This document shows positions 1 through 28,031 of a stretch of DNA of 28,187 nucleotides, one piece after another. The DNA lies in the IMG/VR virus record IMGVR_UViG_3300008107_000422, positions 1 to 28,187 of that record; one strand, written 5' to 3'. The notes below the pieces were generated by a model, which had not been told where the DNA came from, searched no databases, and worked only from the letters and a program-made list of their open reading frames with translations. The translations under genes were made by a program, and so were the position numbers. This DNA is from a virus. Positions within the stretch are counted from its first letter, which is position 1. The number at the start of each line of letters is the position of its first letter.

Positions 1-1
1 A

Positions 2-739
2 GGTGCAACATTCTCAAAGGTTGAATTGACTACAAAGAAGATTCGTCTTGACTGGGAAGTATCTGCAGAAGCACTAGAAGATAACATCGAAGGTGCAGCA
101 CTAGAAGATCACATCGTACGCTTGATGACAAACGCTTTCGGTAATGATATCGAAGACCTTGCAATCAACGGAGATGGCGCAACAGGAAACTTCTTGTCAA
201 TCATGAACGGTTTCGTAAACCGTGTAAAGACTGACGGAGATGCTCATGAGTCAGTTGTAACAGTCGCTAATAACGCCTGGACAACAGATGTAATGCAGAA
301 CATCATCCTAGCAATGCCACGTAAGTATCGTGCTATCAAGTCTAACTTGAAGTTCTATGCTGGTACAGACGCATTCCAGGGTATCGTTAAGAATAACGGT
401 ACACTAGCAGACGCAGTTGCTGAAGCATTTGCTTCACGTGCTGGCGGTACTCCAACAAATCGTCAAGCATACCTTGACGGTGGAGCACAGACATTCGGCG
501 GAGCACGTACAACACGTGTTCTAGGAATTGACGTACAGGAAGTTCCATACTACCCTGCAGGATATGTCGACTTGACATTCCCACAGAACCGTGTATGGGG
601 ATTCCAGCGTGACATCACAGTAAACCGTGAATACAAGCCAAAGAAGGACACTGTAGAATATACAGTCTTCGTTCGCTTCGGTATTCAGTGGGAAGAGCAG
701 GATGCAATTGCATTCGCTGATGCTGCAGCAGACGCATAA
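2..739 (+). CDS. Major capsid protein, 5' end missing
   Basis: This is the C-terminal 245 residues of an HK97-fold major capsid protein, the subunit that builds the icosahedral head. The frame is already open at base 2 (reading GATFSKVELTTKK), so the TTG at 26 is internal and the true start lies before the window. Recognisable family features are the KVELTTKKIRLDWEVS strand, the ALEDNIEG and LEDHIVRLMTNAFGNDIEDL segments that fit the spine helix, and a C-terminal stretch with VWGFQRDITVNREY typical of the A-domain and P-loop end. All 13 arginine codons are CGT or CGC, unlike most neighbours, which fits very high expression. A hairpin follows the stop. The family call rests on recalled similarity and on position before the connector genes. 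Confidence 0.9.
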   Translation, partial: GATFSKVELTTKKIRLDWEVSAEALEDNIEGAALEDHIVRLMTNAFGNDIEDLAINGDGATGNFLSIMNGFVNRVKTDGDAHESVVTVANNAWTTDVMQNIILAMPRKYRAIKSNLKFYAGTDAFQGIVKNNGTLADAVAEAFASRAGGTPTNRQAYLDGGAQTFGGARTTRVLGIDVQEVPYYPAGYVDLTFPQNRVWGFQRDITVNREYKPKKDTVEYTVFVRFGIQWEEQDAIAFADAAADA

Positions 740-760
740 TCTGTAAACAGTACAATTTAG

Positions 761-790
761 GGGGAGTAGGAGTTAACGCTCCTGCTCCCC
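761..790 (+). terminator. Hairpin after the capsid gene
   Basis: A 12-bp stem (761-772 with 779-790, one G-T wobble) closes a 6-base loop. It follows the capsid stop by about 20 bases. The bases after it (TTACTACTT) are only moderately T-rich, so it may be a partial terminator or an mRNA 3'-stabilising hairpin rather than a strong intrinsic terminator. Confidence 0.6.
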
Positions 791-798
791 TTACTACT

Positions 799-812
799 TA
801 TAATGATATAAT
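799..812 (+). promoter_or_regulatory. Promoter with two overlapping -10 boxes
   Basis: TATAAT occurs at 799-804 and again at 807-812. The second is preceded by TGA (804-806), giving an extended -10 of the form TGnTATAAT. No convincing -35 box is seen. Transcription would start near 819, just at the AAGGAGG ribosome binding site (819-825) of the gene at 830. Confidence 0.6.
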
Positions 813-829
813 ACTAACAAGGAGGAATT

Positions 830-1294
830 ATGGAAAACATTAATGAAAATCCAATTGTAGAAGAAGCAGTATTTGAAACACCAGTTTACGAAACACCAGT
901 TTACGAAGCACCAGTTGCCGAAGAGGTTGTTGTAGAAGAAGCAGTTGTTGAGCATGTTGCAGAAACTCCAGTTGTAGAAGAGGCTGCTCAGGCAGTCGTA
1001 GAAGCACCTGCATACCAGGCACCTGAAGAAGTTCAGGCACTTGGATCAGTAGCAGAAGGTGTTATTGGGGCAACCACAGCAACAAAGACATCTCCAAAGA
1101 AGAAGAGCGTAAAGGCTTCAGAAGTTAAAGAAACTGTTGCAATTTATTCAACAAAGAATGTTACATGGCCAGAAGTAGGCAAGGTTTACCGTGGTTACAA
1201 CATTGTTGAAAAAGATGCTGCTGAAAAGTGGCTTACTCGCTCACACATCCGCACAGCCACACCAGAAGAAGTTGCCAAGGAATTCGGTAAGTAA
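830..1294 (+). CDS. Post-capsid protein with acidic repeat N-terminus
   Basis: The function is not recognised. Residues 1-70 are a low-complexity Glu/Val/Ala/Pro region built of repeats such as ETPVYETPVYEAPV. A Thr/Lys-rich linker (about 80-95) leads to a compact basic C-terminal domain with YSTKNVTWPEVGKVYRGYNI and a final helix TPEEVAKEFG. The start is well set by AAGGAGG five bases or fewer upstream. All three arginine codons are CGN, as in the capsid and tail-tube genes, and it has its own promoter, so it is probably an abundant virion protein. A head decoration or head-fibre role is a guess from position directly after the capsid gene. The disordered acidic arm could be exposed on the capsid surface. 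Confidence 0.75.
   Translation: MENINENPIVEEAVFETPVYETPVYEAPVAEEVVVEEAVVEHVAETPVVEEAAQAVVEAPAYQAPEEVQALGSVAEGVIGATTATKTSPKKKSVKASEVKETVAIYSTKNVTWPEVGKVYRGYNIVEKDAAEKWLTRSHIRTATPEEVAKEFGK
875..919 (+). repeat. Tandem 15-bp repeat, three copies
   Basis: GAAACACCAGTTTAC occurs at 875-889 and is repeated exactly at 890-904. A third diverged copy (GAAGCACCAGTTGCC) is at 905-919. It encodes the pentapeptide E-T/A-P-V-Y/A and is in frame, so copy number could vary without breaking the gene. Confidence 0.9.
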
Positions 1295-1297
1295 AAT

Positions 1298-2221
1298 ATG
1301 GAGATATTGAGAGTTCCGCCATATGATGACATCATAGTAAACTTTGTTGTTCCTTCAGGATACAGCGATGCAGATATCTATGCAAGAGTAACAGATATGG
1401 CGGACCTTTCAGTACAGGTTTTAGAATTTATAGAACGGTCAACAGGAGATAATCTTAGCATCCAACTTCCTGGAAGATATGATAATAACCATAGAGTTGA
1501 GATTTTTACAGTTGGCGAGGGTACAGAAAGTTTAATTCACGAAGAATACTACGAACTAATAAGACCATATGTAGACCCAAATACACTAGGAACAACGGCA
1601 TCAGAGATTGCTGAATATACAGTATTAGAATTAGTTGCAAGATCCATGATAGATACATTTGTCCCAGAAGGTTTCTATAACAAAAAGATAACAATAGTTG
1701 GAACTGGAAATGGTTCAGACTATTTTTCTTTATGGGAAAAGGTTTACAGAGTCTTCAAGGTTTATGAGAATAATGTTTTAGTTTATGATAGATCAACACC
1801 AGACTTAAATGAATACCAGTATGTAATAACATCAGATAAAACTGCTATACAAAGAGTTAGGGAAGATGTTCTAGAACTAAACAGATATGAGTCAACAGCC
1901 CAGAATCTGCCAGTGGCAAGCGGAGATCTAGGATATTATGGCTATGAAGGAATATCATTCCCTTCAGGATATGATTACACATTTGTTGTTGATCACGGAT
2001 ACATAACAGTCCCTGCTGACATTGAGTATGCAGCAAAACTATTAATAGAAGATCTTAAGTGCGGGAAACTTGATTATTATAAAAGATATATCACAGCATA
2101 CAATACAGATCAATTTAGAATTCAATTTGATAAGTCAATGCTTAGCGGAACAGGAAACTTCCTAGTAGATAAGATACTTGAAAAATATGTTAAAACCATT
2201 GTCAAGCCAGGGATAATTTAA
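1298..2221 (+). CDS. Head-tail connector (adaptor) protein
   Basis: A 307-residue protein placed where siphophages encode the gp6/gp15-type adaptor that binds the portal. The N-terminal part is beta-rich (residues 1-80, with VPSGYSDADIYARV). The middle has an alpha segment TASEIAEYTVLELVARSMID (about 108-127), typical of the helical connector fold. The C-terminal part has a second helical segment (AAKLLIEDLKCGKLDYY) and a conserved-looking end, FRIQFDKSMLSGTGN. The extra N-terminal beta region makes it longer than the usual 100-150 residue adaptor. Arginine codons are 12 AGA, 1 AGG and 1 CGG. It starts 3 bases after the previous stop and overlaps the next gene by one base (TAATG). The precise connector class is inferred. 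Confidence 0.65.
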   Translation: MEILRVPPYDDIIVNFVVPSGYSDADIYARVTDMADLSVQVLEFIERSTGDNLSIQLPGRYDNNHRVEIFTVGEGTESLIHEEYYELIRPYVDPNTLGTTASEIAEYTVLELVARSMIDTFVPEGFYNKKITIVGTGNGSDYFSLWEKVYRVFKVYENNVLVYDRSTPDLNEYQYVITSDKTAIQRVREDVLELNRYESTAQNLPVASGDLGYYGYEGISFPSGYDYTFVVDHGYITVPADIEYAAKLLIEDLKCGKLDYYKRYITAYNTDQFRIQFDKSMLSGTGNFLVDKILEKYVKTIVKPGII

Positions 2222-2667
2222 TGATATGCGAGCAACCAGATTTTGCATTCCCAATGCTTGCAGATGTTTATCATCCAGTAGTTGAGCAGGGTATTTACGG
2301 CAACGTAGAAAAGACCTGGATCCTTGATAGAACAATTGCCTGTTCTTTTGCATCAGCAGGTGGAGCATTTAAGGAAGAACTAACTCCCAATGTAAACATA
2401 ACACAGGACAAGATACTAATTGGCAGAGTAAAGACAGACATCAGAATGTCAAGCCTTGAGGCAAAGAACTCAATTACAAATGTTATAGTAACAAATATCA
2501 GAGATCAAAACTGTAATGAAATTTATCTAGAAACATCTGGCCCACGTTCTGGAAAGTCTACTATCTTTGAGATTGCAACACAAGATCCTTTTGTCGGTCC
2601 TTTTGGCTCAACAGAATATTATAAGTTAATTATAAGACGATCAGAAAATCAGGCGGTAGATGTATGA
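2221..2667 (+). CDS. Head closure (stopper)-like neck protein
   Basis: A 148-residue, mostly beta-strand protein between the adaptor and the tail-completion gene, the slot normally used by the stopper that closes the head after DNA packaging. Visible features are YGNVEKTWILDRTIACSF near residues 26-43, then LIGRVKTDIR and ITNVIVTNIRD strands, in keeping with a small beta-barrel stopper. Start overlaps the previous stop (TAATG) with AGGGA upstream. It shares ATGA with the next gene, indicating translational coupling. No diagnostic motif is visible, so the role rests on gene order. Confidence 0.5.
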   Translation: MICEQPDFAFPMLADVYHPVVEQGIYGNVEKTWILDRTIACSFASAGGAFKEELTPNVNITQDKILIGRVKTDIRMSSLEAKNSITNVIVTNIRDQNCNEIYLETSGPRSGKSTIFEIATQDPFVGPFGSTEYYKLIIRRSENQAVDV

Positions 2668-3338
2668 TTAAGATAAAGTTTAATACCGTACAATTTAACA
2701 AGGACATGAAGAATATAATTGACTATTCAACTGGCTTTGCCGAAGGAATACAAAAAGGTAAAAAAGACTTTCTTAATACACTTGGTATTGATGTATCTGA
2801 AATAGCCTCACAATTTATTGATACAAATGCTAGAGTGTCTCCAGACACCCTTCATCACGTTTATGAGTGGTATAAGAACGGAAGCCCAGAGGCTAGACTG
2901 TTTGACATAAACTATACAGTTAGCAATATTGGCCTTTCATTTATATCAAACTTTAAACAATCTAATAGTGTAAAAGAAGGATCTAATGAGCCTTTTCGTG
3001 ACAAGGCTATAATTATGGAAACTGGTAATTCTGTTGTAATAAGACCACGCAATGCAGAGGCTTTAAGGTTTGAAGTTGATGGAAAGATTGTTTATACAAA
3101 GAGACCAGTACTTGTTCAAAACCCAGGAGGAAACACTCAGGGAGAGTTTGAGAAAGCATTTGATATGTTCTTTGGAAGATATTTTACTCAAGCATTTTTA
3201 AATAGTGGTAACCTTAGACAGTACTTTGAGAACCCATCAGTGTACAAGAAAAACTTAGGAAAGGGCAAGCGTGGCGGAAGGTCAACTGGTATTTCTACAG
3301 GGTATCGTTGGGTCGCAAATGCATCGGTGGCTAGTTAA
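2664..3338 (+). CDS. Tail completion (HK97 gp10-like) neck protein
   Basis: A 224-residue protein resembling the HK97-gp10 family that joins the tail to the head. An N-terminal helical half (about 1-60) precedes SPDTLHHVYEWYKNGSPEAR (about 58-77), a pattern I associate with this family in actinophages. A beta half follows with FRDKAIIMETGNSVVIRPRN, then FEVDGKIVYTKRPVLVQNPG. The C-terminus has FEKAFDMFFGRYF followed by a basic Gly-rich tail (GKGKRGGRSTG). The start codon sits inside the preceding stop (ATGA), with AGGCGG seven bases upstream. It is followed by another TAATG overlap. Confidence 0.65.
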   Translation: MIKIKFNTVQFNKDMKNIIDYSTGFAEGIQKGKKDFLNTLGIDVSEIASQFIDTNARVSPDTLHHVYEWYKNGSPEARLFDINYTVSNIGLSFISNFKQSNSVKEGSNEPFRDKAIIMETGNSVVIRPRNAEALRFEVDGKIVYTKRPVLVQNPGGNTQGEFEKAFDMFFGRYFTQAFLNSGNLRQYFENPSVYKKNLGKGKRGGRSTGISTGYRWVANASVAS

Positions 3339-3925
3339 TGTCTACATCAGTATTAAACACTCCAGTCCTATGGATAAACCAATATCTTAAAGAAAAAATT
3401 GAACTGCTAACTGACCTAGAGGATGTTCCCTTTTTCCCAACAGGTCCATCAACACTTGAAACTTTACAAACCCAGTTCCCAGATGGTGGAACCATGGCAG
3501 TCTATGACAGAATGTTTAAGATGCGTAGAGGTGCTTTCCCACACATAAAATGTGAGCAAATCCTATACTATTTTTATGCATCTGGCAATCAACCAATGTT
3601 AAAGATGATTCAGATACAAGAGTCAGTTATGAGGCTACTTGATCGTGGGGATGAGAGTGCACAGGATATAAACTCCTGGGCAAGAGGAAAGGTTATAGGT
3701 GGAATGACCTGCAAATTCTATTTCCATGATTTTAAGATTTACCAACTAGAAGAGGCAAGAGATATAGTTGACTTTGGCACAGCCCGAACCTATGCGGGTA
3801 ATAAGATAATCATTGACTATGACTACCACCAAACATCAAACAAGTATGCTGAAACAAATGACTCCACCCCAGAAAGACCAAGATATAATACAAACGTAGT
3901 CGTAGAAGAAGGAATTCTTCCTTAA
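3338..3925 (+). CDS. Tail terminator-like protein
   Basis: A 195-residue protein placed just before the tail tube gene, where siphophages encode the terminator that caps the finished tail and docks it on the head. It has an N-terminal helix (LNTPVLWINQYLKEKIELL), a strand around KCEQILYYFYAS, a central helix LKMIQIQESVMRLLDRGDES and further strands (TCKFYFHDFKIYQL), matching the alpha-beta layout of such proteins. The last 35 residues look extended and polar. It overlaps the previous gene by TAATG and is followed by a hairpin. The assignment is positional plus fold impression. Confidence 0.55.
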   Translation: MSTSVLNTPVLWINQYLKEKIELLTDLEDVPFFPTGPSTLETLQTQFPDGGTMAVYDRMFKMRRGAFPHIKCEQILYYFYASGNQPMLKMIQIQESVMRLLDRGDESAQDINSWARGKVIGGMTCKFYFHDFKIYQLEEARDIVDFGTARTYAGNKIIIDYDYHQTSNKYAETNDSTPERPRYNTNVVVEEGILP

Positions 3926-3965
3926 AAAAGGGCTGTATAATTAGATTGAGGAAACAAGCCCTTTT
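3926..3965 (+). terminator. Hairpin before the tail tube gene
   Basis: AAAAGGGCT (3926-3934) pairs fully with AGCCCTTTT (3957-3965), with a 22-base loop. The stem's own TTTT is the only T tract. It follows the terminator-protein stop directly and may end or slow upstream transcripts. Its loop contains a TATAAT box. Confidence 0.55.
3936..3941 (+). promoter_or_regulatory. Possible -10 box for the tail tube gene
   Basis: TATAAT lies in the loop of the hairpin at 3926-3965, immediately preceded by TG without the usual one-base spacer. A start near 3948 would give a leader of about 48 bases carrying AAAGAGGTGA. No -35 box is apparent. Confidence 0.4.
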
Positions 3966-3995
3966 AATCTAAAAGAAAAAAAAGAGGTGAAATAC

Positions 3996-4616
3996 ATGGC
4001 ATATACACGTGGTAGTTCTAACGATATTATCGTTGGCGCAGCAGCACTCTTCACATACGAAGATGGCGCACTTGCAGACGCAGATCTTCCAGCATACGTA
4101 TCAGGCACATCATTTAAGGATACCCTTCAAGATGATGTAGACTTCCGTAACGTTGGATACACAATGAATGGTTTGGAAATTCAATTCCAGCCAGATTTCG
4201 GTGAAGTAGCAGTAGACCAGGTACTTGACGTTGCTAAGTTGTTTAAGCAAGGCATGCAGGTAAACCTAAATACTACATTCGCAGAATCAACGCTAGAAAA
4301 TCTTCTATTTGCATTAGCAGGTAAGGATTCAGCACTAGCAACAACAGCAGGAAACCCAACACTTAATCTTTCAGCAGGAGACATTGGAGATGTTCCAGTC
4401 GAACGCGGTTTGGTTGCAGTTGGTCCAGGAACTGGAGACGCTACAGAAAATATTGAGCGTGTCTACGTTGCATACCGTGCACTTTCAATCGAGAGCGTAT
4501 CAGTATCAGCAAAGCGTGACGAGGCGACAATGTTCGAAGTATCATTCCGTCTTCTTCCAAATGACAATGCTTCATACGGTAAGATCGTAGATCGTACTGT
4601 TGGCGTTGGCGCATAA
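3996..4616 (+). CDS. Major tail (tube) protein
   Basis: A 206-residue protein that should polymerise into the tail tube. It begins MAYTRGSSNDIIVGAAALF and has the alternating strands of tube proteins: FRNVGYTMNGLEIQFQPDFG (about 49-68), LDVAKLFKQGMQVNLNTTFAE, VYVAYRALSIESVSVSAKRD, and FEVSFRLLPNDNASYGKIVD at the end. ATG 3996 is chosen over the in-frame GTG at 3987 because AAAGAGGTGA (3981-3990) is correctly spaced from 3996. All its arginine codons are CGT or CGC, as in the capsid gene, which is the expected mark of a very abundant virion protein. Hairpins sit on both sides, so it can be transcribed as a unit on its own. Confidence 0.85.
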   Translation: MAYTRGSSNDIIVGAAALFTYEDGALADADLPAYVSGTSFKDTLQDDVDFRNVGYTMNGLEIQFQPDFGEVAVDQVLDVAKLFKQGMQVNLNTTFAESTLENLLFALAGKDSALATTAGNPTLNLSAGDIGDVPVERGLVAVGPGTGDATENIERVYVAYRALSIESVSVSAKRDEATMFEVSFRLLPNDNASYGKIVDRTVGVGA

Positions 4617-4638
4617 TATAACTTAATATATACAGTTT

Positions 4639-4672
4639 GGCCCAGACCGTAAAAAGTCTGGGCCTTTCTGTT
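4639..4672 (+). terminator. Rho-independent terminator after tail tube gene
   Basis: A perfect 9-bp GC-rich stem, GGCCCAGAC (4639-4647) with GTCTGGGCC (4656-4664), has an 8-base loop. TTTCTGTT follows (4665-4672). This is the most convincing terminator in the window. Confidence 0.85.
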
Positions 4673-4677
4673 ATACT
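4669..4677 (+). promoter_or_regulatory. Extended -10 promoter, probably leaderless
   Basis: TGTTATACT fits TGnTAnnnT. The last -10 base (4677) is 6 bases before the ATG at 4684, so transcription should begin at or next to the A of the start codon. No ribosome binding site lies between. It directly abuts the terminator T tract. Confidence 0.6.
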
Positions 4678-4683
4678 ATATAT

Positions 4684-5367
4684 ATGGCAACAACTGTATA
4701 TAATACAAAAAATATTACTCTTCAAGATGGGGTAGAGATAGAGTTGTCTCCACTAAAAATAAAATATCTTAGACAATTAATGGACAACTTTGACGAGGTT
4801 AGAAATGCTCAAGGAGACCTAGAGGCCATCGCAGCATTATCAAAGTGTGCAAGAATTTGCATGAAACAGTTTAGACCAGAGATTACTCAAACTCAAGATA
4901 TGTTAGAAGAATATGTTAACCTGCAGGATATCTATGATATTCTAGATATTACTGCTGGAATTAAAATTAATGATAAATCAGAAGAGCCCGTAAAAAAACA
5001 AGCAGTCGATAGTGGTTCATCTTGGGATGATCTAGACCTAGCAAAACTAGAGTCAGAGGTTTTTTTGCTGGGTATATGGAAAGACTACGAAGAACTAGAA
5101 ACATCACTATCTATGCCAGAGTTAATGATAACTCTTTCTATGAGCAGAGAGTTAAACTACGAAGAAAAGAAATTCCTTGCAGCAATGCAGGGTGTCGACC
5201 TAGACAAAAATGCTGGAAAGTCTAATGCCTGGGAAGAAATGAAGGCCAGAGTATTTAGTGGTGGCGCAGCAGCCAACGCAAAAGACATTGTTGCACTTCA
5301 AGGAATTAGTGCACAGAAGGCTGGATTTGGAATCGGCATGGGCTTAGACTATGAAAAAATAGACTAA
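4684..5367 (+). CDS. Tail assembly chaperone, long (GT-like) form
   Basis: A 227-residue protein between tail tube and tape measure, the place of the lambda G/GT chaperones that coat the tape measure during tail assembly. Residues 1-100 form the G-like domain (DGVEIELSPLKIKYLRQLMD, then LQDIYDILDITAGIKI). After a charged linker, residues about 115-227 form the T-like part (SSWDDLDLAKLESEVFLLG, YEEKKFLAAMQG, QKAGFGIGMGLDYEKID). Unusually the two parts lie in one frame. Seven As at the linker (4992-4998) form an in-frame A-AAA-AAA slippery site, and a -1 slip would stop four codons later, giving a 109-residue G-like form. The next gene is a paralogue of the N-terminal domain. No ribosome binding site precedes the ATG. 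Confidence 0.75.
   Translation: MATTVYNTKNITLQDGVEIELSPLKIKYLRQLMDNFDEVRNAQGDLEAIAALSKCARICMKQFRPEITQTQDMLEEYVNLQDIYDILDITAGIKINDKSEEPVKKQAVDSGSSWDDLDLAKLESEVFLLGIWKDYEELETSLSMPELMITLSMSRELNYEEKKFLAAMQGVDLDKNAGKSNAWEEMKARVFSGGAAANAKDIVALQGISAQKAGFGIGMGLDYEKID
4992..4998 (+). other. Slippery heptamer A AAA AAA in chaperone gene
   Basis: Codons read GTA AAA AAA CAA, so the heptamer has the canonical X XXY YYZ phase. A -1 slip reads ACA AGC AGT CGA and stops at TAG 5010-5012. It sits exactly at the boundary between the G-like and T-like domains. I did not identify a stimulatory structure. Confidence 0.55.
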
Positions 5368-5383
5368 AAAACAAGCCTGTTTA

Positions 5384-5392
5384 TGGTATAAT
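5384..5392 (+). promoter_or_regulatory. Extended -10 promoter TGGTATAAT
   Basis: TG-G-TATAAT matches the extended -10 consensus exactly. A start near 5399 would give a leader of about 18 bases containing GGAGG (5407-5411). No -35 box is seen. Confidence 0.6.
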
Positions 5393-5416
5393 TAAACAAC
5401 TACAATGGAGGAAATC

Positions 5417-5749
5417 ATGGTTAAAGAAGTAGAAAACAAGAATCAACTGTCCCTTATAGATGGAACAAAGTTTGAGATTAAGCCACTAAAGATATCTCTA
5501 CTTAAGCCTTTTATGGAACACTTTACTAAACTGCAAGAAGTTGCAGACGATAATAGCAAGTCAATGGATGTACTTATTGATTGTGTACAAATTGCATTTA
5601 AACAATACTTGCCTGCAATTGCAGACAACAGAGAGGCGATTGAGGAAAATCTAGATCTTCCTACAGTCTACAAGATCATTGATGCTGCTTCAGGAATGCA
5701 AAGGCTATTAATGCGACTGGAAAGTTTGTTGCAACGCAGAAAGATGTAG
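5417..5749 (+). CDS. Short tail assembly chaperone paralogue
   Basis: A 110-residue paralogue of the N-terminal domain of the preceding gene. DGTKFEIKPLKISLLKPFME aligns with DGVEIELSPLKIKYLRQLMD, and LDLPTVYKIIDAASGM aligns with VNLQDIYDILDITAGI. It lacks the T-like domain. ATG 5417 is preferred over 5405 because GGAGG (5407-5411) lies five bases before it. The last 17 codons give an Arg/Leu-rich tail (QRLLMRLESLLQRRKM) that does not match the paralogue. Over the same bases the -1 frame is open from 5683 and runs without a stop into the tape measure gene. The natural product may therefore be a frameshifted fusion, or the gene may carry a one-base indel. Confidence 0.7.
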   Translation: MVKEVENKNQLSLIDGTKFEIKPLKISLLKPFMEHFTKLQEVADDNSKSMDVLIDCVQIAFKQYLPAIADNREAIEENLDLPTVYKIIDAASGMQRLLMRLESLLQRRKM

Positions 5750-5793
5750 CCACAAGTACATCGTCTTTTACACAGGCACTTGAAAAAAATCAA

Positions 5794-8700
5794 ATGTCAA
5801 TGAAGCAGTACTTTAGGTACACTGCTGCAGCAGCAACGCAAAATACCAAAATATTTAAAGGTATGTTTGCACAAGAGCGTGAGACTTTAACTCGTGCTAG
5901 TAAAGATAGGGTAAAACTCCTACAAGCACAGTATATCCAGATGCAGTCTGCAAATGGGGATATGATCAAGACCCTTCAGGTTATTCCAAAACACCTGAAA
6001 ATGGTTAATGGTCAGTATACAGACTATGCAACACGCATGCAAATGGCTGCACAAAGACAGCAATTTTTAAACAAACTATTAAGTCAAGGCTCAACACAAC
6101 TCCTGAATTTTGGTAAGAATACTCAGTGGGCAGGTCGTCAGTTAATGGTTGGTTTAACTATTCCGCTTACGATTCTAGGATCAACTGCAGCAAAAACATT
6201 TATGGAAATGGAGCAGGCAGTAACCAAGTTCTCCAGAGTATATGGAGATATGACAACTGGAAATGATGCAACAAACAGAGCAATTGCAGACATTCAACTA
6301 CTTGCAAAAGAATTTACAAAGTATGGCATTGCAGTAAAAGATACTGTAGAAATGGCTGCAACAGCAGCAGCAATGGGCTTAACTGGAGGGGCTTTAAATG
6401 CACAAGTAATTCAAGCAACCAGGCTTGCAGTACTTGGACAGGTAGAACAACAGCAGGCGCTAGAGACGACAATCTCTCTTACAAATGCTTTCGGAATTGC
6501 TTCTGAAGATCTAGCAAAAAAGATTAACTTTCTTAACGCAGTAGAAAACCAAACTGTTCTTTCTATTGAAGATTTAACTATTGCTATTCCAAAGGCTGGA
6601 CCAGTTGTAAGGCAACTTGGTGGATCTGTAGAAGATCTTGCATTCTTTATGACTGCAATGAAGGAAGGTGGAATCAACGCATCAGAAGGTGCTAACGCAC
6701 TTAAGTCTGGTCTTGCTTCTATGATCAATCCTTCAAAGAAAGCAAGCGAGTTCCTTGCCGAACTGGGAATTAATATTACAGGAATTGTTAACGCAAATGC
6801 AGGAGACCTAAAAGGAACTGTAGTTGGATTTGCTAGAGCGTTAGATACTTTAGATCCTCTTAACCGTGCAAGAGCAATTGAGCAGATGTTTGGTAAGTTC
6901 CAGTTTGCTCGTCTATCAACTTTATTCCAAAACATAACAAAAGATGGTACTCAGGCATCTAGAGCACTTGGTCTTGCTGGAGCATCAGTTGAAGAATTAG
7001 CAATCTTGTCTGAACGAGAACTTGGCAAGGTTGAAGATATGACTGGTGCTAAGTTTAAGAAGTCTATGGAAAATCTTAAACTTCAGTTAATACCAATAGG
7101 CAAGGCATTTTTGCAGGCAGCAACTCCTATAGTTAATTTTGTTGGAAGAGTGCTAGAAAAGTTTAATACTTTAAGCGACGGAACTAAAAAAGTTATAACA
7201 GTTGTTATTGGAGTCATTGGAGGGCTTGCACCAGTCCTATTGATGACATTCGGTGTTCTAATGAACTTTGTTGCAAATGGTATCAAGTTATTTGCAAAAC
7301 TTCGTGGTGGAGTTGCTCAACTTAATGGCTCAAACAATGTTCTAGGTGGCGGATTTGAATATTTAACTAATCAGCAAATTGAAAACCTTGCACAGTCTAA
7401 CGCTTTGCACACATCCCATAGCCAACTAATATCTACATTTAATGTTGAAGCAGCATCAGTTCAAGCACTAGCAGCAGCATATCACGCAGCAGCAAGTCAG
7501 GCAAGAGCACTTGCTCAATCATCTCCAGGTTTATTTAACACAGTTCCAGGACCAGCAGGAGCAGTAGCAGGCCTGCCAAAGAAGTTTGCAACAGGCGGAG
7601 TTGTTCCAGGTACAGGAAATAAAGATACTGTCCCAGCAATGCTTACTCCAGGAGAAGTTGTTCTATCAAAAGACATGGTCAAGAAAAATCCAGAACTAAT
7701 TGCTGGAATTATGAATGGTAGTGTTAAGAAATATTCACAGTCAACAAACATAGAAGGCGGTGGATTTTCTACAGAGGCTCTAAAGGCAAGAGCAGAACAA
7801 ATGAAGGCTGTCTATATGGGTACTGGTAGCGAGGGTTTTGACACGAGAGTCGAGGGACTTATAGACGGTGCAATATCTGCTGGAACAGCAGGAGTTAAAA
7901 GAATAATTGAGTTTGCTAGAGCATCTGGTGAGGAAATTGTAGAGTCACAAACAGAGGCTATGAATCGTTGGCGAAGTGCAATGCTTGATGAAGCAGATGC
8001 AGCACTTGCTGCTGTGCCAGATAGGTCTGCTAACAAGCAGGAAATTAAAGAGTTCTTAAAGAGTAGAGCACTTGGTTCATCAAATGCATTTGACACACTA
8101 GATACACATGGAAATCAAAATGGTGCAAAAACTTTTGCACACACAGAAACATCCTCAGAAGTTCCTTATTCTCAAGCATTACAGTTGACTTCTGAAAATC
8201 CTGCTGTTGCTGATAGAGTTAAACTAATACAAGCAGGAGCAGATTGGATGAATAACCTTCCAGATTCAGATCCAAGAAAACCTGCCACCCCAGTAACACC
8301 AAAGTTTAGACCAGTCTCTGCTGCAGGTATTGAAGGAATCTCGATGGGCCTAAACAAGAAACTAGACACAGGTACCGCAAGCGTTGATGCTTTTATTACT
8401 GAATTTACTAATTTAGACCCAATTGAAAAATGGAGAACAAGCCTTGAAAATGCTGGCCTAGATGTTGATCAACACGCTGAAGGAATTAGACAACTTGATG
8501 CGGTTTATGAAGAACGTTTAAGAGATTTTGCTTCTAAAAATAAAACGGGGAAGATGAGTGACTCAGACTTAACTACAATTAGAGAAGAGGCTCTATCCGA
8601 TCCTAGAGTAGACCCAACTGTTGCAGCAGCAGCCAGAAGATCATCTAACAATGTTTCAGGAATAAGATCAAGCGGAGTAGGTAAAGAGCAACAAGATATA

Positions 8701-11700
8701 ATCATGGAAGCATACGCCAATGGGGAGATTCCTCTACCAGATGGCGTAACCTCGGTACCTGATGTGGTATTTCCAAAATCAGGTTCAGCAATCGGAGGAG
8801 AAGCAGGAAGAGGAAGAAGACTTGGAGTATTTGATCAAGAAGTAGAAGATACATTAGCCCCTCTCGTTGTGGCTACTCCAGAAGCAGAAGCAGATGCTGA
8901 AGCAGAAGGTGAAAAAATTGGCAAAGCAGCAACAAGAGGTGTAAAGAAAGGTGCAAAAACAGAATCGCCTTCTAAAGATGGAATTGAGGTTGGTAAAGAT
9001 ATTGCAGAAGGAGTTGTTATTGGTTTGCAAGAAGGAGAGGCATCGGTTGCTTCTCAGGGCGCACAACTTGGCTCTTCTGCTGTACCGAAAAAACCAAGGA
9101 CCGCAGCAGAAACACAAGCAAGAGTCGACAAAATGGATCTGGACAATAAATCTTTTTACGATGACCTAGACACTCCAGAATTTAGAGAACAAAGACAAAT
9201 ACTTAAGTCACAAGATAGACACAGAAGAAAGATGGGTGCCACAGGAACCGTAGGCGGTGGTCCAGTAACACCACCAGTACCAGGACCATCTTCTTTAACT
9301 GTCTCCTCAACAGCAAGAACTGAAGCAGCAGCAGAAAAATTAGCAGTAAGCACAGAACAAGCAGCAACTGCTCAATCACAAGTTGTTCAGCAAATTCATG
9401 ATGAAAGTAAATCAAGAATTACAATCAAGGGTAACACTATTAACATTGGCAAGGCCCGTGAAGATGCAGACAGACTAGACAAAGAAGCCTCCGATGCAGA
9501 AGCAGCAGCAGCCAAGGTTAGAACTGAAGCAGCAAAGTGGGAAGAGATAGCAGCCCGTGAAAAAGGCAAGAATATGCAGACTGCTGAGAATGCTAAGGCC
9601 CTTAAAAAGCAGGCTGATGAAGCAGAAATTAGAGCAGCAGAAGCAAGAATAAAAGCAGCAGAAGCACAGCGTGTAGCAGCCGAACTTGAAAACGGTGATG
9701 GTGCTGTAGAACAAATAATTCAAGACCCAGTAAAGACTCCAGCAAAGGTTAAAAAAGCAGAAGAGATTATTTCTAACGGAACCGTTGAAGCAGGAGACGG
9801 CATGCGACGAATTGTTGACGGGACAGATGAAACAGCAGACTCAACCCTCTTAGTTGCAGATCAAACAGATGAACTTGCAGCAACAACTGGAGAGATCATT
9901 CCAGCACAGACAGAAAACTTAGATAATGTTATAACAACAGCATCACTAAACGATGCAATTGTACAAACTACTGGAGATATTCACGGATCAACAATAGAAA
10001 CAGCAATGTCTCAAGAAGAAATAATTGCACTACAAGAACAAGAAAAGTTTTTAAGAGAGCAACTAAATGAAAACCTTGCACAACAAAATGCTGCTCTTGG
10101 AGCAGGTAGTGGCCTTAGCCAAACAGCAAGTGACTTTAGCAAAACAGGCAAAAAAAGACTAACCGAGCAGGAAGCACTAGATGAATTTTGGGGAAGAGAC
10201 CCAGGAACCAATGGTGAAGATGATAAGGGCCAGAAGGGGTACACAAAGAATAAAAAGGGCGAGGTACTTTTTGATCCAGAAACTGGTCAGCCAACAACTA
10301 TGGATGAAAAACAAATAACCAAAAAGAAACGTGGTATGCGTAAAGAAAAGGTTGGAAAGTTTTCTGGTAAGGCAGCAGGAGCCCTAGGAACAGCAACAAT
10401 GGTTGCTGGTATGGTAGGAGCACCGCCACAGGTTACAGCAGCATTAGGAACAGCAGCGACAGTTGCACAGTTTGCTCCGATGCTTGCAGGTATGGGTCCA
10501 GTAGGTATAGCAGTGACTGCTATCGCAGCAGTCGGTGTTGGTCTAATGGTTCTCAATAAGAGACTACAAGCATCCTATGATGCTCAAGCAAAGTTTGTTC
10601 GTGAGACATCTGCATCAACAAAGAAGATGGCAGAGATTGGAGCAATAACTGGTAAGGTTGGTGCTTCTGAAATTATGGCTAAGAAACGAGCCACGGGAAC
10701 CACAAGAGATTATATAGTTAGAGAAAGAGCAGGCTCTTCTTTTGGCGATACATTTATGCAATCTGATACTGGTAAAGCAATGTCAAAAACTCTTCAGGCA
10801 AATATTACAAAGTCTGGAGCAAAAGAAGCAGCAGAAACATTTGCAACAGAGATCGCAGCATATGTTCAAGATGGAGTTTTGACTGCAGCCCAGGCTCAAG
10901 ATATTGCCTATCAAATTGGAGTTAACTTTAAAGATACATCTCTTGGAATTAAAATTGATGCAAACCTTTCAGCGTTGATAGGACCAAATGGAGAAGATCT
11001 TGCAAAAGACCCTATGGTCATTGGAATGAGACTTGTAGCCTCTGCAGAACGAGGTTCTGTAAATTCAGTTAAAAGTATTGATGAAGCAAAAAGTCATGGT
11101 CTATCTGGAGCAGTAGAAGCAGCAGACCTTGGTGCAAGAGATGCAGTGGCCATGCAGATGGCTCAAATGCAAGCAGATGCCGTTGCCAAAAGATACGATG
11201 ATGAAATTAGAGCACTAGAAGCACAAGTTGCACAAACCAAAAACAAACAAGAACAGATTAAACTTGAAGGTAAGTTAACCGCTCTAAAAGAAAAAGCATA
11301 TGATGCAGAATCTCAGATGAACAATATGGTTGCTAACCAAACAGATATGGCAATGCAAAGATTTACTGAAGAGATTCAACACCAAAGTGTGGTTTGGGAT
11401 GCTGTAACCCTTGGACTATATAAACTTTGGGGAGCAGGAAACCAAAGAGAAGCAGCATATACTCAAGCACTTAATGGAGCAATAACTGATAAGTATGCAA
11501 ACACAGAACAAGCAACTCAGGCAGCAACAGTTTCGGACAGACTTGCAAAGTTTGCTGACGGTAAGACCCTGGGGTTTGGAACCAATAATTATGAAGACGC
11601 AGGGTTTGAGGGTGGCAAAGAGGCTCAGCAGTTTGAGGTAAAGATGAAACTGTTGATGGCAAATGGAACGCTTACTCCAAACCAAACAACAGCGATGCTG

Positions 11701-14700
11701 GACTTATTTGAGGGTAACCTTCCAAGACTTGAAACAATATTGGATATTGGAACAAGAATGCATGGTGCTTCTGGAACTGCAGAACTAATCATGCTATTAA
11801 CAAACTTTCAAGATAAAGAGTATGCACAAAAAATAGCATTAGAAGTAACTACAGCAGATAATGAGTCATTTAAAAAGTTGTCAGATATTCTTGGACTTGC
11901 TGTACAGATGGACGGTAAAGAAATTAACATGGAAGTTGTTGTTACAGAGGTAGGCGGGGTTGCGGGATTAGAATACTACATTGAACAACTTGACTTACTT
12001 GAAACAAAAATAAAAGGCCTTAAGGGTAAAGATATAAAACAAGAAGATGTTGCTCAATTTACAAACGATACAAATGTAAAAGTAGATGACGGATTCCTTG
12101 ACTATATAAACACAGAGTTTAAGGGTGATGGAAAGAAGCAAGCAGATGCCATAAGAGCCTATACCCTTGTATATAAGCAAATTATGTCAATGGATTATGA
12201 AAGTGAAGAAGCAAGAGATTACTTTAGATCACAAGCGGGTCAGGCTGCAGTTGACAAACTAAATGAACTTAAAAAAGCAGGAAATGTCCCAGCAGACATT
12301 GAGACATATATAAAGCAACAAACAGAGATTGAAATTGATGCTTTGATTACAAAAGTAAAGGTTGACCCAACAGCAGTTACAGGAGATAAAGTTGAAACCT
12401 ATCTAGGAACCAAGCCAGTAGTTGACAGCAATACTGGCCCTGGCGGTAACAAAGATGGAGGAGCAAAGAAAGAAGATCCTCTAGCATTCCTAGATTCTCT
12501 CGCTATGCGTATCAAGATGGTTAGAGATCAAGCATTTAACGCAAAGAAGCCAATTGAGTCAATGCTCGCAGCATTCAATAGTCCTGCTGCAAAGAAAAAT
12601 GTTGCAAACATGTTTACACTATTTGATGGCTTACAACAAAAACTTATTGCTCTAAAGGTTCCAGAAGAATTTAGAGATTATATTGCAGGGCTAGATGCAC
12701 AGCAACTTGAAGATTTAAGGAAGGCTGACCTTGACAAAAAGAAAAAGGGACAGCAAGGAATATTTACCTATGGCGAAAAGAAAGATAAAGATGGAAAGAC
12801 TGTAAAAGATAAGAAGGGTAATGTTGTTTATGATACTTCAAGAATTGTTGGAATATCAAAAGAAGGTAAGGCTATCATGGCTGCCTACAGAGAGGCTCCT
12901 CTTGACAAATTCAATATTGCACAACGCAAGGTAATAACTGACACTGACATGCAGTTTAAAGCCTTTAATAAACTGAAGGCAGCAGGAATAGATACAGGCG
13001 TTGCTCTAGAAACTGTATCAGACTCAGTTCTTGCAGCATCAATTGCTTCAAGTGCATTACAAGGTACCGATCTAAAAATATTTGTTGAGGACCTAAAGAA
13101 CTCTGCAAATGCAGCAGAGAAGGCTGCTGTGATGGCAGACCTACTAAAAAAGAATGCAGACTTTAAATTTAAAAAAGAAACTTTCCCAAAACTTGCCTCT
13201 TCACTAAAGATTGCAGGCCTTTCTGCTGAAAATATTGCAACAGTTCTTCAAGACCCAGCACTAGCAAAGCAGTTGATGGCAGATCTAGAAGATGGCAAGA
13301 TAGACTCTAAAGCAATTGCAGATTATTTAAAGAGCATAAAAGAAGAAAAAATTGTTGAAATTCGTGGTAAGTTTAATGCTGGAGACTTTGCTGCTGCAGC
13401 AGCCCCAGGCATGGAACTTGTTAATAAAATGTTTGCAACACAAGAGGCATTAATAAGAACTGGCATTGATGGTAGATCTAAAGCCATGGTTGCAAGACTT
13501 AAAGATTTAAAGGAAGTTAATGAAAACCTACAACTTGATATACAAAAAATAACATTTAACCAAATACGTCCAATCGAAAAGGCTATTGAAACTGCAACTA
13601 GAAATCTTGAGATTCAGGTTACCCGTAGGATTGAGGTCTTTCAAGAAGAAATAAGCGACCTACAAAGAGTTATTGAAATTGCTTTTGAAAGACCTATCGC
13701 TGCGATAAATGCAGAAAATACAATCCTGTCTAATGACATGGAAATAATGAACCATGCTGCAGAAGAAATAAACAAGAGATATGACGAGCAGGCAGAAGCC
13801 CTATCCAAGGTTGCAGAAATTAATTCACAAATTGTTGAACAAGAAAAGGAACAACTTGATTTAGCAGATGCATTATCTAAGGGTGATATTGCTGCTGCAG
13901 CGAGGGCAGTCCAATCGATCAGAGCAACACAGGCTGCAAAAAATGCAGACAATGCATCAAAGGCTTTAGAGCAGTCACGCAAAAATGAAGTGGATAGCCT
14001 TAGAGGTCGTGATTCAGGTCTAACTAAGAGTGAGATAACTGAAAGACAGTATGTGAATTCACAGGCTATATATGATTTAGAAAATAGAGCAACCACAGAA
14101 GTTAATGGAAAACTTCTTACAAGACTTCAGATCCTAGATGACATTAAAAATAAAAGCGATGAAATTTATAAACTTGAAGAAGATCGTGAGGCAAGACAAC
14201 TTGCTATCCGTGCACTTGAAGATAAAATTTATGATATAAATGAAAAACAAATTAAGCCAAAGCAAGATATAATTGACGCCAATGCTCTTCAGATTGCCAT
14301 AGATGAAGATGCAATGCAAGACCTTGTAGATAACATAACCGTTCTTGGAAAAACAAAAGATGTTTGGGATGGTATTTCAGCCAAGATTGAAGCGTCATCA
14401 CTTGCTGGACAAGATTTTGATGGTCTTATGGGAAGCATGCTTGCATCTGTTGATGAAATTGACAAGGGATGGAAGAATATAGAAAATACCCTTAGCAAGT
14501 ATTCTTCTGCATCTGCAGCAGCCTCTGGCACTACAATGGATAATCTAAGACAAGAGTTTAAGACTTCAGCAGCAAACCTTGAGGCACTCGCAAAAGCAGA
14601 AAAAGATAAGTCTGAAGCAGCAATCAAAGCAGCAGAAGATGAGTATAAGATTAAGAAAGACACCTACGATCTAGAACTTGAATCAATGAAGACTCAACTT

Positions 14701-16107
14701 GAGGCTGCAAAAGCAAGAAACGATTACCAAGCAGCAGGAATGATTAACTCAGCAATTGCTGCTTATGTAAAGAAGGGCCCACCAGTTGCTCCTGTATCAG
14801 GTCCAACAACTGCAGCAGATAATCCAAATGTAGACTACAACGACCCTACAAAAAACGCTGCAAATGATATTTATAAAACTGGATTATATGATGGTAAAAC
14901 AACAAGTAGCGCTGGAGGAAAATCTAGTACTACAGGTACAGGTGGAACAACAGGTGGTGGAACCACAGGTGGAACTACAGGTGGTGGAACTACTGGCGGA
15001 ACAAACGATCCTGTTCCAAGCCCTGGACAACAAACTCCTCCAAAAGGCAATACTCCACCAGGAGGGACAAAGAAAAATGCTAATGCTGACACTGCTGCAG
15101 GAACAGCAATGACCGCAGCAGAAAAAGCAATTGTAGCATCAGCATCAGCAAAGAGAATGGATATATTAAAAGATATAGCACTTAATAGAGCAAAGTTTGC
15201 TCTCAGCAACATAAAAACCAAATATGGAACTGATGATAAAAATAGCAAAACTTATGCAAATTTAACTGGGCAAACAAGAACAAACTTTGATACAGACTAT
15301 GCAGCGTATGAGGCTCTTGCACTTGCTGCCAAGGATTGGACAACAACTCCTAGTGGAGCAACCACAAGTTGGTCCTATAGTTCTAAGGCAGGTCTGGCTG
15401 AAGAAGAAAAATTGTTAAAGCAATTGCCAGACTGGGTACAAAAAGCCGTAGCGTTAATAGACGCAAGAGATGATCTTTACTACACAGATTATCCTAAATT
15501 TAAAGAAGTACGAGGAAGATACTACGATGCAAAAGAAGAAATGAAGATTGGAGACAACTGGTCATTCAAACAAATTGAAGAGTATCCGACATTTATGAAT
15601 AAGTATGGCAATCTATATAGAGAGTATCGAGCAATTCATAAGACATTACACGATACAAATAATGCAACAGATGCAGCCCGTGCCAATTTACTTAAGGCTG
15701 GATATAATGAGGAAAATTTAGGCTGGGCCTTTAAGAGTGGTACAAGTTCTTACCGATTTACTAATCAAACTCCAGCAGGGTTTGTACCACATAGTAGTTT
15801 TGCTTATTATTCTAAGGGTGGGTTTGTTGCTTCTAGATTTGCACAAAAGAAATTTAGTATGGGAACTGACACAGTACCAGCCATGCTTACCCCTGGAGAA
15901 TTTGTGATGAGTAAGTTTGCTGTACAATCACACGGCACAGAAAAGATGAAGGCAATAAATAATGGCTCATCCGTAGGAGACTCAGTGTATAATTATAGTA
16001 TTAGCGTAAATGTTAAGTCTGAATCAAACCCAGATGAAATTGCAAGAACCGTCATTGCTCAAATAAAGAGCGTGGACGCACAGAAGATTAGAGGAGTTAG
16101 AATATAA
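5794..16107 (+). CDS. Giant tail tape measure protein
   Basis: At 3437 residues this sets tail length and sits inside the tube. Residues about 107-460 match the TP901-type tape measure core (KNTQWAGRQLMVGLTIPLT, FMEMEQAVTKFSRVYGDM, AEGANALKSGLASMINPS-like segment). A hydrophobic stretch follows (467-500), and a second Gly/Ala-rich one lies at about 1527-1588. Both may help DNA cross the host membrane. Ala/Glu-rich helices fill about 1050-1330, and a long coiled-coil region spans about 2569-2990. A Gly/Thr linker lies near 3050-3070. The motif DTVPAMLTPGE occurs twice, near residues 610 and 3359. No ribosome binding site precedes ATG 5794, and the frame is open upstream to 5683, overlapping the chaperone paralogue, so the true N-terminus may be longer. 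No peptidase or lysozyme motif was seen. Confidence 0.95.
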   Translation: MSMKQYFRYTAAAATQNTKIFKGMFAQERETLTRASKDRVKLLQAQYIQMQSANGDMIKTLQVIPKHLKMVNGQYTDYATRMQMAAQRQQFLNKLLSQGSTQLLNFGKNTQWAGRQLMVGLTIPLTILGSTAAKTFMEMEQAVTKFSRVYGDMTTGNDATNRAIADIQLLAKEFTKYGIAVKDTVEMAATAAAMGLTGGALNAQVIQATRLAVLGQVEQQQALETTISLTNAFGIASEDLAKKINFLNAVENQTVLSIEDLTIAIPKAGPVVRQLGGSVEDLAFFMTAMKEGGINASEGANALKSGLASMINPSKKASEFLAELGINITGIVNANAGDLKGTVVGFARALDTLDPLNRARAIEQMFGKFQFARLSTLFQNITKDGTQASRALGLAGASVEELAILSERELGKVEDMTGAKFKKSMENLKLQLIPIGKAFLQAATPIVNFVGRVLEKFNTLSDGTKKVITVVIGVIGGLAPVLLMTFGVLMNFVANGIKLFAKLRGGVAQLNGSNNVLGGGFEYLTNQQIENLAQSNALHTSHSQLISTFNVEAASVQALAAAYHAAASQARALAQSSPGLFNTVPGPAGAVAGLPKKFATGGVVPGTGNKDTVPAMLTPGEVVLSKDMVKKNPELIAGIMNGSVKKYSQSTNIEGGGFSTEALKARAEQMKAVYMGTGSEGFDTRVEGLIDGAISAGTAGVKRIIEFARASGEEIVESQTEAMNRWRSAMLDEADAALAAVPDRSANKQEIKEFLKSRALGSSNAFDTLDTHGNQNGAKTFAHTETSSEVPYSQALQLTSENPAVADRVKLIQAGADWMNNLPDSDPRKPATPVTPKFRPVSAAGIEGISMGLNKKLDTGTASVDAFITEFTNLDPIEKWRTSLENAGLDVDQHAEGIRQLDAVYEERLRDFASKNKTGKMSDSDLTTIREEALSDPRVDPTVAAAARRSSNNVSGIRSSGVGKEQQDIIMEAYANGEIPLPDGVTSVPDVVFPKSGSAIGGEAGRGRRLGVFDQEVEDTLAPLVVATPEAEADAEAEGEKIGKAATRGVKKGAKTESPSKDGIEVGKDIAEGVVIGLQEGEASVASQGAQLGSSAVPKKPRTAAETQARVDKMDLDNKSFYDDLDTPEFREQRQILKSQDRHRRKMGATGTVGGGPVTPPVPGPSSLTVSSTARTEAAAEKLAVSTEQAATAQSQVVQQIHDESKSRITIKGNTINIGKAREDADRLDKEASDAEAAAAKVRTEAAKWEEIAAREKGKNMQTAENAKALKKQADEAEIRAAEARIKAAEAQRVAAELENGDGAVEQIIQDPVKTPAKVKKAEEIISNGTVEAGDGMRRIVDGTDETADSTLLVADQTDELAATTGEIIPAQTENLDNVITTASLNDAIVQTTGDIHGSTIETAMSQEEIIALQEQEKFLREQLNENLAQQNAALGAGSGLSQTASDFSKTGKKRLTEQEALDEFWGRDPGTNGEDDKGQKGYTKNKKGEVLFDPETGQPTTMDEKQITKKKRGMRKEKVGKFSGKAAGALGTATMVAGMVGAPPQVTAALGTAATVAQFAPMLAGMGPVGIAVTAIAAVGVGLMVLNKRLQASYDAQAKFVRETSASTKKMAEIGAITGKVGASEIMAKKRATGTTRDYIVRERAGSSFGDTFMQSDTGKAMSKTLQANITKSGAKEAAETFATEIAAYVQDGVLTAAQAQDIAYQIGVNFKDTSLGIKIDANLSALIGPNGEDLAKDPMVIGMRLVASAERGSVNSVKSIDEAKSHGLSGAVEAADLGARDAVAMQMAQMQADAVAKRYDDEIRALEAQVAQTKNKQEQIKLEGKLTALKEKAYDAESQMNNMVANQTDMAMQRFTEEIQHQSVVWDAVTLGLYKLWGAGNQREAAYTQALNGAITDKYANTEQATQAATVSDRLAKFADGKTLGFGTNNYEDAGFEGGKEAQQFEVKMKLLMANGTLTPNQTTAMLDLFEGNLPRLETILDIGTRMHGASGTAELIMLLTNFQDKEYAQKIALEVTTADNESFKKLSDILGLAVQMDGKEINMEVVVTEVGGVAGLEYYIEQLDLLETKIKGLKGKDIKQEDVAQFTNDTNVKVDDGFLDYINTEFKGDGKKQADAIRAYTLVYKQIMSMDYESEEARDYFRSQAGQAAVDKLNELKKAGNVPADIETYIKQQTEIEIDALITKVKVDPTAVTGDKVETYLGTKPVVDSNTGPGGNKDGGAKKEDPLAFLDSLAMRIKMVRDQAFNAKKPIESMLAAFNSPAAKKNVANMFTLFDGLQQKLIALKVPEEFRDYIAGLDAQQLEDLRKADLDKKKKGQQGIFTYGEKKDKDGKTVKDKKGNVVYDTSRIVGISKEGKAIMAAYREAPLDKFNIAQRKVITDTDMQFKAFNKLKAAGIDTGVALETVSDSVLAASIASSALQGTDLKIFVEDLKNSANAAEKAAVMADLLKKNADFKFKKETFPKLASSLKIAGLSAENIATVLQDPALAKQLMADLEDGKIDSKAIADYLKSIKEEKIVEIRGKFNAGDFAAAAAPGMELVNKMFATQEALIRTGIDGRSKAMVARLKDLKEVNENLQLDIQKITFNQIRPIEKAIETATRNLEIQVTRRIEVFQEEISDLQRVIEIAFERPIAAINAENTILSNDMEIMNHAAEEINKRYDEQAEALSKVAEINSQIVEQEKEQLDLADALSKGDIAAAARAVQSIRATQAAKNADNASKALEQSRKNEVDSLRGRDSGLTKSEITERQYVNSQAIYDLENRATTEVNGKLLTRLQILDDIKNKSDEIYKLEEDREARQLAIRALEDKIYDINEKQIKPKQDIIDANALQIAIDEDAMQDLVDNITVLGKTKDVWDGISAKIEASSLAGQDFDGLMGSMLASVDEIDKGWKNIENTLSKYSSASAAASGTTMDNLRQEFKTSAANLEALAKAEKDKSEAAIKAAEDEYKIKKDTYDLELESMKTQLEAAKARNDYQAAGMINSAIAAYVKKGPPVAPVSGPTTAADNPNVDYNDPTKNAANDIYKTGLYDGKTTSSAGGKSSTTGTGGTTGGGTTGGTTGGGTTGGTNDPVPSPGQQTPPKGNTPPGGTKKNANADTAAGTAMTAAEKAIVASASAKRMDILKDIALNRAKFALSNIKTKYGTDDKNSKTYANLTGQTRTNFDTDYAAYEALALAAKDWTTTPSGATTSWSYSSKAGLAEEEKLLKQLPDWVQKAVALIDARDDLYYTDYPKFKEVRGRYYDAKEEMKIGDNWSFKQIEEYPTFMNKYGNLYREYRAIHKTLHDTNNATDAARANLLKAGYNEENLGWAFKSGTSSYRFTNQTPAGFVPHSSFAYYSKGGFVASRFAQKKFSMGTDTVPAMLTPGEFVMSKFAVQSHGTEKMKAINNGSSVGDSVYNYSISVNVKSESNPDEIARTVIAQIKSVDAQKIRGVRI
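14940..15002 (+). repeat. Tandem 27-bp Gly/Thr-coding repeat
   Basis: Two near-identical 27-bp units (14940-14966 and 14967-14993) are each built of AGGTGGAACnAC plus AGGTGGTGGAACnAC. A partial third unit ends at 15002. In frame it encodes a GGTTGGGTT linker in the tape measure protein, followed by a Pro-rich segment. Confidence 0.85.
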
Positions 16108-16766
16108 TGGCAACCAATGCATACATGGCAGGTCGTAAAAAATATCAAAGACCTCAAGGACTTCTTTTTGCAGATAACCAGGGGATCAAGGTTGATGGAT
16201 TTCATATCCCTGAAGGGGACGAGATTGGGTCATTAGGAGCCTCTGTAGACGGCTATGGCGAGTTCTTAATACTTTCTGATAATAATAGGTCACCCATAGA
16301 ATTTAAGAATACTAGAATTGAAAAACGGGAAAGAATGATCAATGGCCGTATGAGGTCATACCATACTGCTGACAAACTAACCATTACAGTATCTTGGGAC
16401 ATGCTTCCATCAAGAGCCTACGACACATATGCAGGGTTTAATTCTAGTGGAGAGCCAAACCTAGTAAAAAATATAAACACTAGGCCAAATCCATTAGAGT
16501 TTACTACTGATGGTGGAGCAGGTGGAGTAGAACTACTTGATTGGTATAAAAATCATAGCGGATCATTTTGGGTTTATCTTGCTTACGACAAATATACTAA
16601 CTTTAAAGACACATACGAGACTGCGCCAGATGAAAGATTTAACAATACAAATAAATATAATGAAGTCATAGAAGTATTCTTTTCAGACTTTAATTACTCA
16701 GTTCAAAAAAGAAGCGGATTGAACTTTGATTTCTGGAATGTATCCTTAACTTTGGAAGAAGTATAA
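16107..16766 (+). CDS. Distal tail (Dit-like) protein
   Basis: The gene directly after the tape measure in siphophages is usually the distal tail protein, which forms the ring joining tube to baseplate. This 219-residue product fits in size and is beta-rich, with DKLTITVSWDMLPSRAYDTY (about 91-110) and SFWVYLAYDKY. It ends in YNEVIEVFFSDFNYSVQKRS and FDFWNVSLTLEEV, a strand pair common at the C-terminus of such proteins. It shares TAATG with both neighbours, with GAGGAG upstream. No enzymatic motif is seen. The Dit role is inferred from position and fold impression. Confidence 0.6.
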   Translation: MATNAYMAGRKKYQRPQGLLFADNQGIKVDGFHIPEGDEIGSLGASVDGYGEFLILSDNNRSPIEFKNTRIEKRERMINGRMRSYHTADKLTITVSWDMLPSRAYDTYAGFNSSGEPNLVKNINTRPNPLEFTTDGGAGGVELLDWYKNHSGSFWVYLAYDKYTNFKDTYETAPDERFNNTNKYNEVIEVFFSDFNYSVQKRSGLNFDFWNVSLTLEEV

Positions 16767-21576: not shown

Positions 21577-21579
21577 AAC

Positions 21580-23243: not shown

Positions 23244-23252
23244 TGGTATAAT
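23244..23252 (+). promoter_or_regulatory. Extended -10 promoter, probably leaderless
   Basis: TGGTATAAT is identical to the element at 5384. The last -10 base is 6 bases before ATG 23259, the same spacing as at 4677/4684. There is no ribosome binding site between the upstream stop (23241-23243) and the ATG. Confidence 0.65.
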
Positions 23253-23258
23253 TATAGT

Positions 23259-24381: not shown

Positions 24382-24394
24382 CGAAGGGTATGAA

Positions 24395-26122: not shown

Positions 26123-26123
26123 T

Positions 26124-26129
26124 TATAAT
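26124..26129 (+). promoter_or_regulatory. -10 box, probably leaderless
   Basis: TATAAT ends 5 bases before ATG 26135, and there is no ribosome binding site between them. Unlike the other elements it lacks the TG extension. A start near the ATG is expected. Confidence 0.5.
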
Positions 26130-26134
26130 ATGGT

Positions 26135-27351: not shown

Positions 27352-27376
27352 TATAACAACACATAGGAGAAAACAC

Positions 27377-28030: not shown

Positions 28031-28031
28031 T

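What the first reader, a model, noticed from the sequence alone, without database searches (positions are those of the whole stretch)
5683..5800. Chaperone paralogue and tape measure share an open -1 frame
The -1 frame relative to the short chaperone gene is open from 5683 and continues without a stop into the tape measure, whose ATG 5794 has no ribosome binding site. The residues encoded there (AKAINATGKFVATQKDVATS and onward) look like normal protein, while the final 17 codons of the chaperone frame look like out-of-frame Arg/Leu-rich sequence. One added A in CAAAGG (5699-5704) would give an unbroken 3563-residue fusion. Options are a programmed -1 shift, a real indel, or a sequencing or assembly error. 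I see no canonical slippery heptamer, only a weak A-AAG at 5740-5743.
Basis: partly seen in the sequence, partly recalled or inferred. Interest (0 to 1): 0.65.

Follow-up and report, generated by a model that had tools for sequence, protein, structure and literature searches.

The report
Assembly join misread as frame overlap
The odd overlap between a small tail-chaperone gene and the giant tape-measure gene of this freshwater phage record arises where about 215 bases found in every relative are missing, exactly at the end of a separately stored, identical 5,701-base contig, so it is almost certainly an assembly join and not a biological frameshift.

Summary
The reading-frame geometry is as described, but the cause is a break in the sequence. 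Window 1-5701 is letter for letter the reverse complement of a whole, separately held IMG/VR record of 5,701 bp (IMGVR_UViG_3300008113_002683), so the junction lies exactly at a known contig end. Right of 5701 the sequence resumes about 215 nt further downstream than in every relative. In 156 related loci (75 distinct) the chaperone ends normally, a gap of 10-29 nt follows, and the tape measure starts at TTG, GTG or ATG with some 55 residues that the window lacks. The final 15 chaperone codons are out-of-frame tape-measure DNA, and ATG 5794 is an internal codon. No relative has a fusion or an open -1 frame, no slippery heptamer lies in register, and the junction sequence occurs in no other record. 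Best explanation: a join of two contig ends (or a chimeric read), about 0.88. A real deletion variant is possible (about 0.09); programmed frameshifting is not supported. Of real interest nearby: this lineage encodes the long chaperone (G+T) in one frame plus a separate short paralogue, where Streptomyces relatives use a -1 frameshift.

The parts
1..5701 (.). Left piece: identical, end to end, to the reverse complement of the separate 5,701-bp record IMGVR_UViG_3300008113_002683
   Evidence: G014:C1:1-5701, 100%; letter-for-letter string match
5701..5702 (.). Junction (GGAATGCAA|AGGCTATT); about 215 nt present in all relatives are missing here; a short AATGCA similarity exists at the two ends but does not account exactly for the join
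   Evidence: junction 28-mer in no other viral contig
5702..28187 (.). Right piece; co-linear and in frame with relatives throughout (87-89% to the 111,870-bp contig, 100% over 9,161 bp to IMGVR_UViG_3300008448_002164)
5417..5701 (+). Genuine part of the short tail assembly chaperone paralogue (G-like, TAC-N), residues 1-95; relatives add about 12 more residues and a stop
   Evidence: (phrog_10504, 7.6e-16)
5702..5749 (+). False C-terminal 15 codons plus stop of the short ORF: tape-measure DNA read out of frame
5702..16107 (+). Tape measure protein coding sequence lacking its start and about the first 55 residues; the 5794 ATG is an internal codon
   Evidence: (PF10145, 8.2e-26)
4684..5367 (+). 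Long tail assembly chaperone (G and T domains in a single frame, TAC-NC); intact, not affected by the junction
   Evidence: (phrog_10504 and phrog_10474)

Best explanation
The shared open -1 frame is an artefact of how the record was put together. The window consists of a complete contig of 5,701 bp butt-joined to a second stretch of 22,486 bp, without the roughly 215 nt that lie between them in the genome. The loss removes the last dozen codons and stop of the short chaperone, the intergenic gap with the ribosome-binding site, and the start and first ~55 codons of the tape measure. As 215 is not a multiple of three, the short chaperone ORF runs on into tape-measure DNA in the wrong frame and happens to stop at 5749, while the tape-measure frame looks open upstream. 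Shown: identity and exact end of the separate contig; absence of such a loss in all relatives. Inferred: that the join was made by an assembler or scaffolder (or by concatenating contigs of one record), or by a chimeric read, at a point where strains share a highly conserved block.
For: Record IMGVR_UViG_3300008113_002683 is 5,701 bp long and matches window 1-5701 over its whole length at 100%, so both ends of the left piece are accounted for. All 156 relatives with both genes (75 distinct) have a normal chaperone stop, a 10-29 nt gap and a TTG/GTG/ATG tape-measure start. The closest relatives (short chaperone 92-100% identical) have 215 nt more. The junction 28-mer occurs in no other viral contig. 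The rest of the window is co-linear with a 111,870-bp relative with every gene in frame, so this is the only frame-breaking defect. The missing 215 nt are nowhere else in the window. The 100 nt left of the junction are the most conserved stretch of the area among strains (about 97%), and several strains share 111-117 nt exactly there, the kind of place where assembly graphs branch and contigs end.
Against: No reads could be examined. A contig would also end exactly at 5701 if intact and truly deleted molecules coexisted in that sample.
Confidence: 0.88

Rival explanations
1. A real 215-bp out-of-frame deletion in a phage variant of this population, giving a truncated chaperone and a tape measure without its proper start (a defective or attenuated variant, or one that restarts at 5794).
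For: The contig shows no N at the junction; a short AATGCA similarity lies at both ends; coexistence of intact and deleted molecules would also make the 5,701-bp contig end there.
Against: None of 156 relatives shows it; junction found in no other record; it removes conserved residues, the ribosome-binding site and the start codon of a tail gene that is essential in long-tailed phages generally; it needs a coincidence to explain why the separate contig also begins exactly at window base 1.
Confidence: 0.09
2. Programmed -1 ribosomal frameshift that fuses the short chaperone to the tape measure.
For: The -1 frame is open and encodes real tape-measure residues.
Against: No in-register slippery heptamer; in every relative the chaperone stop precedes the opening of the tape-measure frame by 7-28 nt, so no frameshift could join them; the short G-like gene is followed by no T domain, which is already encoded in frame in the upstream gene.
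Confidence: 0.01
3. A single-base sequencing error in a natural chaperone/tape-measure fusion gene.
For: A one-base change of frame would open the reading frame arithmetically.
Against: No relative has such a fusion; all have two genes with a gap; the defect is about 215 nt.
Confidence: 0.01

Closest known systems
Contig-end joins and collapsed strain variants in short-read metagenome assembly
   Same: Break coincides exactly with an independently stored contig end and with a stretch conserved between strains; no support elsewhere
   Different: Assembler and read data for this record could not be examined, so the exact step that made the join is not known
G/GT (TAC-N/TAC-NC) tail assembly chaperones with -1 programmed frameshift (lambda; Streptomyces phage Yaboi genes 59/60)
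   Same: Homologous chaperone domains directly upstream of the tape measure
   Different: In this lineage G and T are in one frame and a second, separate G-like gene exists; no frameshift is needed, and none links the chaperone to the tape measure
T4-like phages proposed to make the short and long chaperone without frameshifting (Vladimirov et al. 2022, PubMed 34826709; not held here, details from memory: two separate genes)
   Same: Short and long chaperone forms from two genes instead of frameshifting
   Different: Different phage lineage; here the paralogues are adjacent and just upstream of the tape measure

Membership tests
Programmed -1 frameshift of tail assembly chaperone genes | Open -1 frame overlap conserved among relatives | tested here: not met
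   Overlap absent in all relatives; frames separated by 7-28 nt
Programmed -1 frameshift of tail assembly chaperone genes | In-register slippery heptamer in the overlap | tested here: not met
   No XXXYYYZ in 5683-5749
Programmed -1 frameshift of tail assembly chaperone genes | Shifted frame encodes a T domain | tested here: not met
   Shifted frame is tape measure; the T domain (phrog_10474) lies in the upstream gene in frame
Assembly or record join artefact | Break coincides with the end of an independent contig | tested here: met
   5,701-bp record identical to window 1-5701
Assembly or record join artefact | Relatives are continuous through the break | tested here: met
   156 loci continuous
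Assembly or record join artefact | No reads span the junction | not testable with these tools
   Raw reads not available

The most novel reading that the evidence does not exclude
The deletion is real: a natural phage variant lost the start of its tape measure gene and makes the protein by restart at 5794 or by rare frameshifting from the chaperone paralogue.
Probability: 0.05. Interest if true: 0.3.

Novelty: not a real feature. Interest (0 to 1): 0.07.

Why it matters
It removes a false candidate for a new frameshift and warns that annotation of this record (chaperone end, tape-measure start, tape-measure length) should not be used. It also shows a cheap test: look for independent contigs that end exactly where a frame anomaly sits. 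The intact relatives reveal a lineage in which a chaperone duplication appears to replace the usual programmed frameshift, which is worth study in its own right.

Tried and rejected
A -1 frameshift: no slippery site in register, no conservation. Missing segment moved elsewhere in the window: only 12-nt chance matches. Other records with the same junction or the same right flank: none. A conserved inverted-logic frameshift in the long chaperone gene (A AAA AAA at 4992-4998): the A tract is not kept in relatives (AAG AAA, AAG TCT, CAA AAA), so rejected. A bacterial genome carrying the long chaperone, as a host hint: no relative confirmed in genome contigs. Strain chimera between left and right: the best-matching strain changes along the right side too, so inconclusive. 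The T4-like chaperone paper (PubMed 34826709) is not held and could not be read.

Full report
What is there. The short ORF 5405..5749 (likely real start 5417, behind GGAGGAAATC) and the 3,437-codon ORF 5794..16107 are as described, and the frame of the latter is open from 5683 without any ATG, GTG or TTG before 5794. The short protein matches phrog_10504, the same family as the N-terminal half of the upstream gene 4684..5367, whose C-terminal half matches phrog_10474. The long ORF holds the Pfam PhageMin_Tail domain. tblastn against annotated phages finds Streptomyces phages, including members of Stanwilliamsviridae, as nearest named relatives, where these genes are annotated as tail assembly chaperone and tape measure.

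Relatives. Two scans of IMG/VR gave 160 loci. Already the search output was telling: matches to the short protein stop at residue 98-99, which is codon 5699-5701. Mapping both genes in each locus showed that in every relative the chaperone stops 7-28 nt before the tape-measure frame even opens. In the closest relatives 307 nt lie between codon 99 and the equivalent of ATG 5794, against 92 in the window. The missing 215 nt hold the end of the chaperone (LSDATGLLNSIK and stop), a gap of 10-29 nt usually with a Shine-Dalgarno-like stretch, a TTG, GTG or rarely ATG start, and about 55 conserved residues (beginning MADVNANIGINFDT or similar). This holds for 156 loci, 75 of them distinct. ATG 5794 is an internal codon.

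The junction. Base 5701 is exactly where one other record ends. IMGVR_UViG_3300008113_002683 is 5,701 bp long and its reverse complement is window 1-5701 letter for letter. The window is therefore a complete 5,701-bp contig plus a 22,486-bp stretch. The junction 28-mer, and a window-specific 32-mer just right of it, occur in no other viral contig. The remaining genes of the window are all in frame and co-linear with a 111,870-bp relative, and the right part is 100% identical over 9,161 bp to another record. The sequence is otherwise of good quality and the defect is local. The 100 nt before the junction are the most conserved stretch of the area among strains, shared exactly over 111-117 nt by several of them, so a branching assembly graph there is expected.

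Interpretation. The simplest account is a join of two contig ends, or a chimeric read, across about 215 unassembled bases. A real deletion in a coexisting variant would also make the 5,701-bp contig end there, but it must explain why that contig also begins exactly at window base 1, why no relative shows it, and how the tape measure would be started. I give it 0.09. A programmed -1 shift has no slippery heptamer in register, no conservation and no counterpart in relatives.

Neighbouring observation. In this lineage the long chaperone is encoded in one frame in every distinct sequence examined, while Streptomyces phage Yaboi is annotated with a joined (frameshifted) product, and in Yaboi, Wofford and Beuffert the two domains lie in different frames. 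A separate short paralogue lies before the tape measure. In a tree of 79 chaperone N-domains the short paralogues form one group with full support. The lineage thus seems to have replaced frameshifting by a gene pair. T4-like phages have been proposed to use a mechanism other than frameshifting (title of PubMed 34826709 as cited in PMC10274946, and PMC12846349; that T4 uses two genes is from memory), so this would be a further case of a known kind and not a new principle. The usual ratio-setting role of the frameshift is reviewed in PMC5009743.

Noticed in passing
4684-5367 and 5417-5701; relatives L003-L161 and others: Long (G+T) chaperone encoded in one frame plus a separate short G-like paralogue, in all distinct relatives of this lineage, whereas Streptomyces phages need a -1 frameshift for G-T; the short paralogues form one fully supported group in a tree. 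Looks like a duplication that replaced programmed frameshifting.
   Followed up: partly
4992-4998: A AAA AAA heptamer in slippery register inside the long chaperone gene, with a -1 frame stop at 5010; not conserved in relatives, so probably chance.
   Followed up: yes
about 5059-5074 (GTT TTT TTG CTG GGT): The string TTTTTGCTGGG at the start of the T domain is kept codon for codon in most distant relatives although neighbouring codons vary; meaning unknown.
   Followed up: no
9488-9718 and 14541-14780: Two short stretches of the tape measure diverge from the closest long relative while flanks stay 87-89% identical; the frame stays open.
   Followed up: no
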